Shown: one piece after another, positions 7,364-14,500 of the stretch | How the letters are laid out: every line of letters starts with the position of its first letter | Numbering within the stretch: position 1 is the stretch's first letter | Assembly (NCBI GenBank): GCA_021234155.1 | Contig: JAJEKV010000024.1 | Coordinates: forward strand, 12,250,913 to 12,314,912 | DNA length: 64,000 nucleotides | Source: Isoetes taiwanensis | Taxonomy: Eukaryota > Streptophyta > Lycopodiopsida > Isoetales > Isoetaceae | Reading direction: 5' to 3' | The notes under the pieces: model-generated | What the model saw: only the letters and a program-made list of their open reading frames with translations | Database searches by the model: none | What the model was told of the DNA's origin: nothing | Made by a program: the position numbers and the translations under genes

Positions 7364-7590
7364 TACGCCATTGGTTGCATTGGTTATAGATCCATATTAG
7401 GAGATTGAATTATTTTGGTAAAGGCTGGAGTCTCTAAACCTTAGTTGGACCTATATTTCATATTTCAAAATCATGGCACCCTCAATCATGAATGAACATA
7501 ATCAAAACGAGAGGCACCCAGAGGCCTCAACATACTGTCCGAGTCGTAGGATGGACGAATGATCGAAGTAGTCCAAAAAGGTGATTTGTT
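7364..7590 (+). repeat. Diverged SINE-like repeat copy
   Basis: The stretch parallels the repeat at 57990-58285. It contains a degraded counterpart of the tRNA-like head (ggttatagatccatattaggag followed by tattttggta) and a better preserved tail (caatcatgaatgaacataatc, then gagaggcacccagaggc). The RNA polymerase III boxes are no longer intact. The tail is joined directly to the Rep-like coding relic, and the tail-plus-coding unit has been multiplied. Confidence 0.5.
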
Positions 7591-8425
7591 TGGTTTAATT
7601 TTGGAACTGTATTGCTCTCATGGTAAGGAACATTGGTTGGTTGAAGGAAGAACACTAGCAACATTTACAAGGCAGGATATAAGTGATGCACTTAATAAAT
7701 TGAAAAATGGCAACGCAATTGACTCCCAAATTCTATCTGGCTTGCTAGACCGTGTTGGCAGCATATTGGCTGAGCTGGTCTGGTCTGCTTCTTGGTGTCG
7801 AAAGGGGCGTTCTTTCCAAATTCAGCTCCCATTCTGCTGATAACATGACCCTCAATCATGGCACCCTCAATCATGAATGAATATAATCAAAATGAGAGGC
7901 ACCCAGAGGCCCCAACATACTGTCCAAGTCGTAGGATGAACGGATGATCGAAGTAGTCCAAAAAGGATGATTTGTTTGGTTTAATTTTGGAACTGTATTG
8001 CTCTCATGGTAAGGAACATTGGTTGGTTAAGGGAAGAACATGGCACCCTCAATCATGAATGAACATAATCAAAACGAGAGGCACCTAGAGGCCCCAATAT
8101 ACTGTCTGAGTCGTAGGATGGACGGATGATCGAAGTAGTCCAAAAAGGATGATTTGTTTGGTTTAATTTTGGAACTGTATTGCTCTCATGGTAAGGTACA
8201 TTGGTTGGTTAAGGAAAGAACATTACCAACATTTACAAGGCAGGATATAAGTGATGCACTTAATAAATTGAAAAATGGCAATACAATTGACTCCCAAATT
8301 CTATCTGGCTTGTTAGACCGTGTTGGCAGCATATTGGCTGAGCTGGTTTGGTCACGCTTCTTGGTGTCAAAAAGGATGTTCTTTCCAAATTCGGATCCCA
8401 ATCTGCTGATAACATGACCCAATCT
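7473..8425 (+). repeat. Three tandem units of SINE tail plus coding segment
   Basis: Unit 1 (about 7473-7856) and unit 3 (about 8040-8425) each contain the SINE tail followed by about 250 bases of the same coding segment. Unit 2 (about 7857-8039) has the same start but stops after ggttggttaagggaagaaca, so it is truncated. The units are very similar, with scattered substitutions and 1-base indels, which points to local tandem duplication followed by a deletion in the middle copy. Confidence 0.75.
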
Positions 8426-8983
8426 GCTGATAACATGATGTTTGCGTTGGTGATGGCGTCTCCTACCCATTCTTCTGCAGTCGGCAGCAACGCAAATGTA
8501 GGTATGTTCTAGGCCTTGTTTGTTGAGAATGTAGGATGCTAAAGAGGTTAGTCAGGCAGTCATTACCAGACTTTGGGCACACAATAGATAAAGAGGGGAG
8601 GCCTGTCGAGAGCGGAGCTCTTGCACTTGTGAGGTCCATGCAGCCAGACCAATTCGAGTGATGCTCATGCTATCTTCCATAACAGTACTTTCATCGAAAA
8701 CACGTCTGAGCAGTTGGAATTGGATGTGGAAAGTGTGAAACATAACCTTATGCTTTTGGCTAATGCCTTCCATCAATCAATTGGGAAGAGAAAGAAGAAA
8801 GACAGTCCCAAGAAACCTTGTGCTATTGTGATAAATGAGCATAATGCGAAGGATGAGTTGAAAAGGCAGAGGGATTTGCAGAGCAGCTGAGAAAGGAAGA
8901 GAAGGAAAAGAAACAAAGGGAGAGGCAGGAAGAACGTGAGAGATGCAAGTGGCAGAGAGCTGAGGCAAGGGAGAAGCAAAGGG
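7590..8983 (+). pseudogene. N-terminal and middle part of a Rep-like (HUH) protein gene, broken
   Basis: The units at 7590-7840 and 8154-8417 translate to a natural-looking segment (DISDALNKLKNG then SGLLDRVGSILAELVWS). From about 8530 the + strand continues with EVSQAVITRLWAHNR, then after a frame change ENTSEQLELDVESVKHNLML at about 8696, then IGKRKKKDSPKKPCAIVI. Another one-base shift near 8870 leads into a highly charged coiled-coil-like stretch (FAEQLRKEEKEKKQRE) that passes into the (GA)n tract coding Glu-Arg repeats. The gene continues after the inserted LINE at 13779. Several stops and frameshifts make it a pseudogene. I infer that all pieces belong to one protein because strand, order and junctions fit. 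The family assignment rests on the downstream HUH segment. Confidence 0.5.
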
Positions 8984-8985
8984 GG

Positions 8986-9099
8986 GAGAGAGAGAGAGAG
9001 AGAGAGAGAGAGAGAGAGAGAGAGAGAGAGAGAGAGAGAGAGAGAGAGAGAGAGAGAGAGAGAGAGAGAGAGAGAGAGAGAGAGAGAGAGAGAGAGAGA
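8986..9099. repeat. (GA)n microsatellite, left part
   Basis: About 114 bp of uninterrupted GA dinucleotide. In every forward frame it encodes alternating Glu and Arg, extending the charged segment just upstream. It ends exactly where the 3' end of the minus-strand LINE begins, so it is one half of a microsatellite split by that insertion. Confidence 0.95.
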
Positions 9100-9149
9100 A
9101 ATGAAATGAAATTTATTATTACGTCTTCGAGACCGCCAGGTCTATGAGA

Positions 9150-12500: not shown

Positions 12501-12506
12501 TATTTC

Positions 12507-12960
12507 CTATGCATCTTCTATCACCGCTTTTCCTCCTCTCCAGTAAGTACGTCTTCCTGCTGCCCTAGCCTCCTTCATTTTCACAATGTCTTCTTTCCTC
12601 TGCTGAAATTGCATCCCCGTTAAATCATCGTTAATCCGGATAAATTGGCCCTTGCTAAAACCGTTTACGCATCACTCTCGCTTTAGCTTCTTTGCTTGCA
12701 CATTTGACCGAATGTTATGTGTCCCCTCACCTTTCTTGCCAATTCGATATGCCTCCGTAATATCCACCGGTGCTTGGATTTGCATTCTTTCTGCAAGGAA
12801 GGTATGAACAAAGCAGCCCAGTTGTCCTCATTCTCCTTTTTCCGTAGGCCAAACAATTCTAAAATTATTAGCCTTCGATTCCCTTTCATGCATATCAGCC
12901 AAGTGCTCTATTTTCTCATTCAAAGCATCAATTGCTCCTTGAAAACCATCATTTGAGCCC
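12507..12960 (-). pseudogene. LINE ORF1-like region
   Basis: The minus-strand segment 12683-12889 (AALFIPSLQKECK, then HIELARKVR) continues, across an internal stop near 12660, into FSKGQFIRINDDL, EDIVKMKEARAAGR and a stop at about 12507, just before the ORF2 start. The layout (a short basic protein right before the endonuclease frame) and the fold-like pattern suggest an L1-ORF1p type RNA-binding protein, but I see no diagnostic motif. Sequence up to 13678 is probably the rest of ORF1 and the 5' untranslated region. Confidence 0.45.
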
Positions 12961-13678
12961 CTATTCAAGTCTCAAACTTTGATCCATGACCTGCTTTGTC
13001 TCTACGATACGCTTGCTAGCTCTTTGCTTTAGCTCTACATTTTACTCTTTAAAGAACACAAAGACTCATTCATACCTTGCAAAAGCTTAAGCATTTGTGC
13101 CTGATGGGCTGCCGCCTCCTTCCTTGCCTCGCTTTCTGCTTCCTTCCCCGGACTGCTCCATGGATTCTAGTAGCTTCATCATCACCGTAGTAAGCAATTG
13201 ACCCATTAGCATCTCTCCTCCCAAGAATCCGTAGAAGGCACCATAGCTCGCTGCAAATCAGCCCCAAAGACAGGCCCAAGCCCTCCGGATATGTCAGCCT
13301 TCAGCCCCAAATCGGTTGCCTCTGCCTCCAGAGATTCCGCCAAAAAAGTACCAGAGTCCCCATCCGAGGTGTCATCCGATATGTCTTCAGAAGAACTTCC
13401 TTGCCCTGCCTTTTACATTCATTTTTTACCTTCTTGACATTGCCTACCACAGTTTATTTGCCCCCTGGGAGCCGAATCAGCCTTGGAGCCCACCTCCTTG
13501 GAGCCCCTTTTTCCCCTCAAGATCTTATCTGTCTCCTTTTTTAGGATGTCCCATCCTACACAAATCCCTAAAATGCCAATTACAGACATCAAAACTAATT
13601 CAAAAGTATTGATGTTATACACCGCTGGAAAGATCTCTAATAAGCTTTCCAACGAGCCCAACCCCGCCCGTTAAATCT

Positions 13679-13778
13679 GAGAGAGAGAGAGAGAGAGAGA
13701 GAGAGAGAGAGAGAGAGAGAGAGAGAGAGAGAGAGAGAGAGAGAGAGAGAGAGAGAGAGAGAGAGAGAGAGAGAGAGA
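13679..13778. repeat. (GA)n microsatellite, right part
   Basis: About 100 bp of uninterrupted GA dinucleotide immediately left of the HUH-domain coding relic and immediately right of the LINE 5' end. Together with 8986-9099 it is one original microsatellite split by the LINE. The long LSLSLS frames on the minus strand here are only translations of the repeat. Confidence 0.95.
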
Positions 13779-14500
13779 TGTGGAAGAAGAAAAACGAGAA
13801 GTCCAATATCTTGGATGTCAGTATTTGTGACGATTAGTGGTGGTGATGTCTGGGATGACTTGTATGACAGAGTGTGTGGTTTTCTGGACGAGCAATGTAT
13901 TGCAGGCATGGTTGCACTTGAGAGAGGGTCTGAGCTAGACCACCTTCACTTGCAATGTGTATTTCGTTTGTCAGCCACAACATCAGCTGCTGTGAATGTA
14001 AGAGTGAAGCAGCATTGGACTGGGTTGTGAATAGGCCTGCAGGTGGCGTTATAATCTGCAAGGTTGTTGAAGGTGTTCCTGGCAAACCTTCAACCTCAAT
14101 GGTTTAGAACCTCCAGGTTGCTTAAGGCAACCACTCTGTGTGAGAAAATTCCAAGAATAAAGCCTAAATACAAGTTTAGAACTGCTTTTCCAAATCAGGA
14201 AAAAAACTGCCTCAAAAAGAATAATGCCATTTGTAAGCAAAGTAAGATCTAATCATGATTTCAAATGTTACAGCCACTCAAAGCCTTGAGGAATGCTAGG
14301 CCAAAAGTCAGATGCCAAAAGAATAGCACAAATCACTCAAAGATGCACTTCTGACTTGGTCAAATATCCATGGCGTAGAGCAATTTTTGCATCGAATAAT
14401 ATGGGTTCTTTTGGTGTTTTGATGCTTGATTCTCTCTCTCGATATGTCGCACACAAGGAAAACTCTCTTTTGCAAAAAAATGATGCAAAAAATCCTTGAA
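13779..14500 (+). pseudogene. HUH-endonuclease (Rep-type) domain relic, Replitron-like
   Basis: The frame 13815-14030 begins SVFVTISGGDVWDDLYD, where VTIS fits Rep motif I. It continues to ALERGSELDHLHLQCVF, where His-Leu-His (13941-13949, residues 43-45) fits the metal-binding HUH motif II. The spacing of about 37 residues between the two is usual for Rep endonucleases of rolling-circle replicons. After 14030 the frame breaks; a continuation (RPAGGVIICKVVEGVPG) is readable to about 14093 in another frame, and the place expected for the catalytic Tyr motif is destroyed. A further coding-like piece (NMGSFGVLMLDSL) lies near 14400-14440. The frame is open leftwards through the GA tract, so it joins the charged segment at 8983. 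Such stand-alone Rep proteins are known from Replitron transposons. No helicase typical of Helitrons was seen. Alternatives are an endogenous CRESS-type Rep or chance similarity. Confidence 0.45.

What the first reader, a model, noticed from the sequence alone, without database searches (positions are those of the whole stretch)
7590..14500. Broken HUH/Rep-type endonuclease gene that resembles a Replitron protein
Seen: a + strand coding relic ends in a segment with VTIS and, about 37 residues later, ALERG..LDHLHLQ, i.e. motif I and the His-U-His motif II of Rep endonucleases at their usual spacing. It is preceded by a long N-terminal region and a Glu/Arg-rich coiled-coil stretch partly encoded by (GA)n. 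Known: Rep-type HUH enzymes occur in CRESS viruses, Helitrons and the recently described Replitron transposons. Inference: the absence of a helicase and the position in a plant chromosome favour a Replitron-like transposon, possibly with a lineage-specific N-terminal module.
Basis: partly seen in the sequence, partly recalled or inferred. Interest (0 to 1): 0.88.

Follow-up and report, generated by a model that had tools for sequence, protein, structure and literature searches.

The report
Dead Replitron split by TC-homing LINE
A chromosome, most likely of the quillwort plant Isoetes taiwanensis, carries a broken copy of a Replitron (a jumping gene that encodes a predicted HUH DNA-nicking enzyme), cut in two by a second jumping element that lies between GA repeats; the Replitron is a further member of a known family, while the second element's likely preference for GA/TC repeats is the less expected part.

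Summary
The HUH piece (13770-14027, +) matches Pfam Replitron_HUH above its cut-off (E 2.4e-7, 31.6 against 28.5 bits). The window's own genome holds a large family: 150 of 150 scored places match, of 2165 candidates. Of 40 fetched copies that span the domain, 39 have the conserved Tyr after the HUH and 37 an intact HUH. Corrections: coding homology starts near 8536, not 7590 (7472-8420 holds partial tandem copies of the upstream region); family homology ends at 14063, before the Tyr segment, so this copy is very likely dead; the insert is a minus-strand LINE. That LINE is the more surprising item: in 10 of 10 close copies the ATTTC tail runs into a TC or T/C tract, and in 5 of 10 a TC array also lies on the 5' side (5 not located). 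Replitrons in lycophytes are already in print (PMC10741241, passages), so this is a new member of a known kind. The host, Isoetes taiwanensis, is inferred from assembly size.

The parts
7472..8420 (+). Partial tandem copies of the region upstream of the relic's coding part (not part of the protein)
   Evidence: Repeat families D2, D3, D6, self-BLAST; 7724-7848 and 8292 onward match L030 before its ORF
8536..8890 (+). 5' coding part of the Replitron relic, in two frames (MLKRLVRQSL... ; FHNSTFIEN...LKRQRDLQ)
   Evidence: tblastn of the L030 protein; blastn of L030, L011, L012 and L013
8857..9099 (+). Lys/Glu/Arg-rich coiled-coil segment in a third frame, running into (GA)57 at 8986-9099
9100..13678 (-). 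LINE insertion with RT and weak AP-endonuclease matches; ATTTC tail and TC array at its 3' end, TC array at its 5' end
   Evidence: Pfam RVT_1 1.4e-9; copies compared
13679..13778 (+). (GA)50 array on the far side of the LINE
13779..14027 (+). N-terminal half of the Replitron HUH domain; motif I within 13821-13838, HLH at 13941-13949
   Evidence: PF21859 2.4e-7, profile 2-65 of 128, on 13770-14027
14012..14071 (+). Short continuation of the domain in another frame; DNA homology to L030, L011, L012 and L013 ends at 14063, before the Tyr motif
9809..18934 (.). Part of a block repeated about 26 kb upstream (outside the window) at 96% identity; its limits were set by the stretch fetched
   Evidence: blastn to L041

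Best explanation
The feature is a broken, very likely inactive Replitron transposon copy, whose gene for a predicted HUH endonuclease is split by a LINE lying between two GA arrays and ends before the segment with the presumed catalytic tyrosine. Shown: the HUH half-domain, the broken frames, the LINE between two (GA)n arrays, the end of family homology at 14063, and 287 distinct related places in the genome from two capped lists, many with long open frames and an intact HUH and Tyr motif. Inferred: working relatives would nick one strand at an element end, hold it by a 5' phosphotyrosine, and be copied and pasted by a rolling-circle-like route without a helicase of their own; head-to-tail copies such as those in L027 fit this. 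Also inferred: the order of damage. The clade's coiled coil is written in purine-rich code with short GA runs; one such run grew into a microsatellite, a LINE that prefers TC/GA arrays inserted there, the 3' part was lost at 14063 by a deletion or other rearrangement, and the block was later duplicated.
For: PF21859 above cut-off for the window piece. 150 of 150 scored genome places over the cut-off, 0 of 14 control genomes. HLH in 37 of 40 and Tyr in 39 of 40 spanning copies. Colinear pieces of the L030 protein on both sides of the LINE. Window copy in a supported clade with L041, L030, L011, L012 and L013 (99/97). Fern relative P0011 with PF21859. Head-to-tail copies in L027 and 7 same-strand pairs within 5 kb among 12 such pairs, about 0.25 expected.
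Against: The window copy itself lacks the Tyr half and its own 3' end, so the single-Tyr feature and terminal repeats can be tested only in relatives. Target duplications were not established, and direct terminal repeats were seen in one family only (2 copies with both ends located). 5 of the 12 close pairs are on opposite strands, and unequal crossing-over could also make head-to-tail copies. The structure prediction failed. For the LINE: 5 of 10 5' ends not located, and 2 of 8 distant copies show neither tail nor array.
Confidence: 0.93

Rival explanations
1. A degenerate Helitron (RepHel) or Helentron of which only the Rep part is left.
For: Helitrons also encode HUH Rep domains and occur widely in plants (recalled; PMC10741241 passages).
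Against: No Helitron family listed for the window piece at E up to 10; the three full-length relatives scanned show no helicase above chance; the relatives show one Tyr in the motif, GYCLK/GYCMK, not two.
Confidence: 0.02
2. An endogenous CRESS-DNA virus Rep (such as a geminivirus-like integration).
For: Same HUH superfamily and similar motif I and II (recalled).
Against: No CRESS Rep family listed for the piece at E up to 10, no relative confirmed in viral contigs (30 pattern matches, 0 confirmed), shared element ends in several families and a copy number of hundreds.
Confidence: 0.01
3. A host gene derived from a Replitron (domesticated), of which the window holds a broken duplicate.
For: Long open frames with conserved motifs exist in many copies.
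Against: High copy number and shared element ends within families point to mobile copies; the window also holds LTR-element and LINE ORFs.
Confidence: 0.02

Closest known systems
Replitrons (Craig 2023, PNAS e2301424120; the paper is not held; known here from passages of PMC10741241 and from Pfam PF21859)
   Same: HUH domain over the curated cut-off, single Tyr in relatives, no helicase seen, element length about 2.4 kb in a family with both ends located, host group (lycophytes) named in the passage
   Different: This copy is broken and lacks the Tyr half; relatives carry clade-specific N-termini (Lys/Glu/Arg-rich in this clade) and a conserved region of about 140 aa after the domain; whether these are described in Craig 2023 is unknown to me
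Adiantum nelumboides hypothetical protein (P0011)
   Same: PF21859 domain with HLHLQ and GYCLKD
   Different: Different N-terminal region and no counterpart of the C-terminal conserved region
Microsatellite-targeting LINEs, such as Togen in (TG)n of fish (PMC4640811, passages); Kibi in (TC)n (recalled)
   Same: The LINE in the insert has RT and a weak AP-endonuclease match and lies within TC/GA arrays
   Different: Found in a land plant (inferred); clade not determined here; no such plant element showed in the titles or abstract starts listed

Membership tests
Replitron | HUH endonuclease domain of the Replitron family | tested here: met
   Window piece 31.6 bits against 28.5; relatives 56.7-75.9 bits in three scanned
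Replitron | Single Tyr motif after the HUH (single Tyr is recalled; the passage read does not state it) | tested here: inconclusive
   Missing from the window copy, which ends before it; present in 39 of 40 spanning relatives
Replitron | No helicase (recalled as a difference from Helitrons) | tested here: met
   Three full-length relatives scanned, nothing above chance; the window relic itself is incomplete
Replitron | Short direct terminal repeats of 5-11 bp, no inverted ones (PMC10741241 passage) | tested here: inconclusive
   ATAAT at the 5' end in 5 of 6 copies of one family and at the 3' end in the 2 copies where it was located; not testable in the window copy
Replitron | Target duplications of 2-8 bp (PMC10741241 passage) | tested here: inconclusive
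   Flanks printed; no clear duplication by eye, no empty sites compared
Replitron | Length 0.9-4 kb (PMC10741241 passage) | tested here: met
   2469 bp in L034 and 2408 bp in L035 between the shared ends; for relatives, not the window copy
Helitron | Rep with two Tyr and a helicase (recalled) | tested here: not met
   No helicase in three scanned relatives; one Tyr in the motif
CRESS-DNA virus Rep | Match to CRESS Rep families and an SF3 helicase | tested here: not met
   None listed for the window piece or the three relatives
Microsatellite-specific LINE (the insert) | Independent copies flanked on both sides by the same microsatellite | tested here: inconclusive
   3' side: 10 of 10 close copies in TC or T/C tracts; of 8 distant copies 5 with long arrays, 1 with 5 units, 2 with none. 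5' side: TC array in 5 of 10 close copies, 5 not located; empty sites not compared

The most novel reading that the evidence does not exclude
In this lycophyte a large clade of AP-endonuclease LINEs homes to TC/GA microsatellites, the first such plant LINEs, and Replitron genes whose coiled coils are written in GA-rich code grow such arrays and so serve as landing sites, so that one transposon family's coding bias makes it prey to another.
Probability: 0.4. Interest if true: 0.62.

Novelty: new member of a known kind. Interest (0 to 1): 0.4.

Why it matters
It verifies by family profile and by genome copies that a Replitron read from raw sequence is real, and shows that this 1.66-Gb genome holds at least hundreds of Replitron copies in several clades, many with long open frames and intact HUH and Tyr motifs: material for testing how single-Tyr HUH transposons move in plants. 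The insert adds a LINE with an apparent TC/GA target in what is most likely a plant, a kind of specificity that the paper passages seen here give only from other organisms.

Tried and rejected
Structure route: the fern protein P0011 aligned with the window piece gave mean pLDDT 34.8; dropped, no fold search made. PDB sequence searches: nothing for the window piece; for the profile of A1 14 sequences at E 0.16 or worse, all matched in its low-complexity N-terminal part. Protein database: the 128-aa ORF gave 10 weak hits (best 1.4e-4; 8 of 10 without a BLASTP alignment to the query), not used; full L026 gave none at 1e-6, probably because its coiled coil supplied the words; residues 175-440 gave one hit, the fern Adiantum nelumboides. 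Viral and prokaryote contigs: 30 and 8 pattern matches, none confirmed. Rejected: the 7550-7840 ORF as part of the protein (no Pfam match; repeated upstream DNA); its genome-wide search did not complete. The genome-wide count of LINE 3' ends did not complete either, so the LINE statement rests on the ends of 18 copies and the window's own, not on a census. Craig 2023 is not held; whether it lists Isoetes is unknown to me. The Helitron and CRESS family profiles were not run over the genome (and 6 requests did not complete and not pursued).
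Full report
What was checked first. A motif pattern of that kind occurs once in the window and in 2 of 100 Markov windows, so the motif alone would be fair but not overwhelming evidence. The family profile is decisive: PF21859 Replitron_HUH, E 2.4e-7, 31.6 bits against a curated cut-off of 28.5, profile positions 2-65 of 128. It was the only Pfam family listed for that piece at E up to 10; PHROGs gave none.

The window lies at C1028:12250913-12314912 of an assembly of 1,658,258,908 bases in 1110 contigs. 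PF21859 matched at 150 of 150 scored places out of 2165 first-look candidates, E 1.3e-20 to 2.0e-16, all over the cut-off, and in 0 of 14 control genomes. With the window piece as protein query, 150 of 150 scored places of 1856 candidates matched; the best after the window itself lies 26 kb upstream (91%), then 80, 73 and 69%. I fetched 41 loci around such places, two of which (L009, L010) repeat the window and L041. Of 46 translated matches in these loci and the window, 40 span the whole HUH-to-Tyr stretch: 37 of 40 have HLH (one each HLY, HLR and HRH), 39 of 40 have the Tyr (GYCLK 21, GYCMK 17, GYWLK 1; one GTCLK), and 3 of 40 have an in-frame stop. In an alignment of 14 genome copies and a fern protein, H220, L221, Q224, Y276 and K279 (numbering of L026) are invariant and the second His, H222, nearly so. 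Three full-length relatives score 56.7, 72.0 and 75.9 bits with PF21859 and show no helicase above chance (one AAA_11 line at E 0.81).

What the relic is, piece by piece. The coding homology begins at an ATG near 8536 (MLKRLVRQSL..., aligned to residue 1 of L030), goes on in another frame (FHNSTFIEN...LKRQRDLQ) and a third (EQLRKEEKEKKQRERQ...), then runs into (GA)57 at 8986-9099. On the far side of the insert (GA)50 (13679-13778) leads into the HUH half-domain, followed by a short piece in another frame up to 14071. DNA homology to L030, L012, L011 and L013 stops at 14063 in all four comparisons, although those copies go on to the Tyr motif. No further piece of the L030 or L026 protein was found in the window by tblastn apart from low-complexity and chance-level hits. 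So this copy lacks the Tyr half and the C-terminal region. The stretch 7472-8420 consists of partial tandem copies (D2, D3 and D6) of sequence that, where it matches L030 (7724-7848 and 8292 onward), lies before that ORF; it is not a long N-terminal protein region. A block of at least 9.1 kb (window 9809-18934) is repeated about 26 kb upstream at 96% identity, with part of the LINE and the truncated HUH piece, so the damage came before the duplication (inference).

The family in this genome. A tree of 44 HUH-domain rows puts the window copy with L041, L030, L011, L012 and L013 (99/97), inside a 20-row clade (90/94); the copies of this clade in alignment A1 have a Lys/Glu/Arg-rich N-terminal part, as has L028, and other clades have other N-termini. 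GA runs of 4 or more units occur in 14 of 33 open frames of 290 aa or more: by my reading 11 in this clade (in L025 at the far C-terminal end), 1 in L028, and 2 (L035, L039) in another clade. Several frames have an AT-hook-like KRGRPRK (AT_hook E 0.059, below its cut-off, in L026). A region of about 140 aa after the Tyr motif is conserved among the genome copies, has no Pfam match in the three scanned, and is absent from P0011. Shared DNA ends: one family starts with ATAAT in 5 of 6 copies and ends with ATAAT in the two copies whose 3' end was located; five copies of other families share a 5' start AGTAGGTT(C/T)CCC, give or take a base (L016, L017, L019, L020, L026). L027 holds three copies head to tail, the third partial, units about 2.4 kb and 94.8% alike. 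Among 287 distinct places pairs lie within 5 kb (7 same strand, 5 opposite) where about 0.25 would be expected at random. Head-to-tail joints fit rolling-circle-like copying, but unequal crossing-over would also give them.

Host and known status. The assembly size equals that printed for Isoetes taiwanensis (1658.30 Mb, 204 scaffolds and 909 contigs; PMC8566536, passages); 1110 records here against 1113 there; the identification is inference. [quoted passage not shown] The primary paper is not held. A protein search found one outside relative, from the fern Adiantum nelumboides (P0011, 2.3e-26). None was confirmed in viral or prokaryote contigs. So the Replitron is a new copy of a known kind in a host group where it is known.

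The insert. 9100-13678 is a minus-strand LINE: RVT_1 1.4e-9; the endonuclease profile (4.1e-4) is below its curated cut-off. Its RT piece matched 150 of 150 scored of 22,011 candidates. I took both ends of the first 10 copies listed after the window (RT identity 93-97%; 16 in the list have 90% or more over nearly the whole piece). In 10 of 10 the ATTTC tail runs into a TC or T/C tract; in L044 it is only four TC units, in L046 and L054 it is mixed with CCCT, in L058 with TCTTC-like units. On the 5' side 5 of 10 show a TC array: L043 and L057, where matching LINE sequence starts within 70 nt of it; L070, a copy truncated at LINE nt 970, where (TC)8 ends one base before the match; L053 and L061, where the following sequence does not align to the window's LINE but looks alike in both. 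In the other 5 the stretch taken holds no array and the 5' end was not located. Of 8 more distant copies (66-82%), L064, L065, L067 and L068 have 35 or more TC units after the tail; L066 has TC and CCCT tracts with (TC)101 beyond 36 other bases; L062 has 5 units; L063 and L069 show neither tail nor array in the stretch taken. TC/GA arrays of 10 or more units number 5 in 327,804 bases of window and Replitron loci, 4 of them this insertion and its copies (L009 repeats the window, L010 its duplicate). The other LINE of the window (36427 to about 42022, +) ends in poly(A). A preference for TC/GA microsatellites is therefore likely but not proven. Microsatellite-specific LINEs are known (PMC4640811, passages); searches showed none in a plant by title or abstract start, which is a weak negative.

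Mechanism. Shown: anatomy, conservation, copy number, damage. From established knowledge of HUH enzymes: nicking of single-stranded DNA with a 5' phosphotyrosine bond (also stated in PMC13231165, passage). Inferred: replicative transposition by the intact relatives; microsatellite growth in the coiled-coil code before the LINE came; loss of the 3' part; later duplication of the block. The window copy itself is not expected to do any of this.

Noticed in passing
window 9100-13678; L042-L070: LINE whose copies end in TC or T/C tracts and, in 5 of 10 cases, also have a TC array on the 5' side: likely TC/GA-microsatellite targeting.
   Followed up: partly
window 7472-8420: Partial tandem amplification of the relic's upstream region, with 92-96 aa ORFs that match no Pfam family; cause unexplained.
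   Followed up: partly
window 9809-18934 and L041: Block of at least 9.1 kb repeated about 26 kb upstream at 96% identity.
   Followed up: partly
L027: Three Replitron copies head to tail, with a direct repeat (TAGCCATTAGAGTT, twice) at each joint; a possible record of rolling-circle-like copying.
   Followed up: partly
A1, about 140 aa after the GYCLKD motif (L026 residues about 300-440): Conserved region with no Pfam match (LYALYGAGEIK...VLDNRN...WVLP.N...RVEAAWR), absent from the fern relative; function unknown.
   Followed up: no
window 36427-42022 (+): A second LINE with RVT_1, Exo_endo_phos and zf-RVT matches, ending in poly(A).
   Followed up: partly
window 29530-31101 (+) and 53033-55659 (+): LTR-element ORFs (gag_pre-integrs, rve, RVT_1, Tf2-1-like SH3).
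   Followed up: no
window 24749-25372 (-): Leucine-rich-repeat ORF, 207 aa, possibly a host gene fragment.
   Followed up: no
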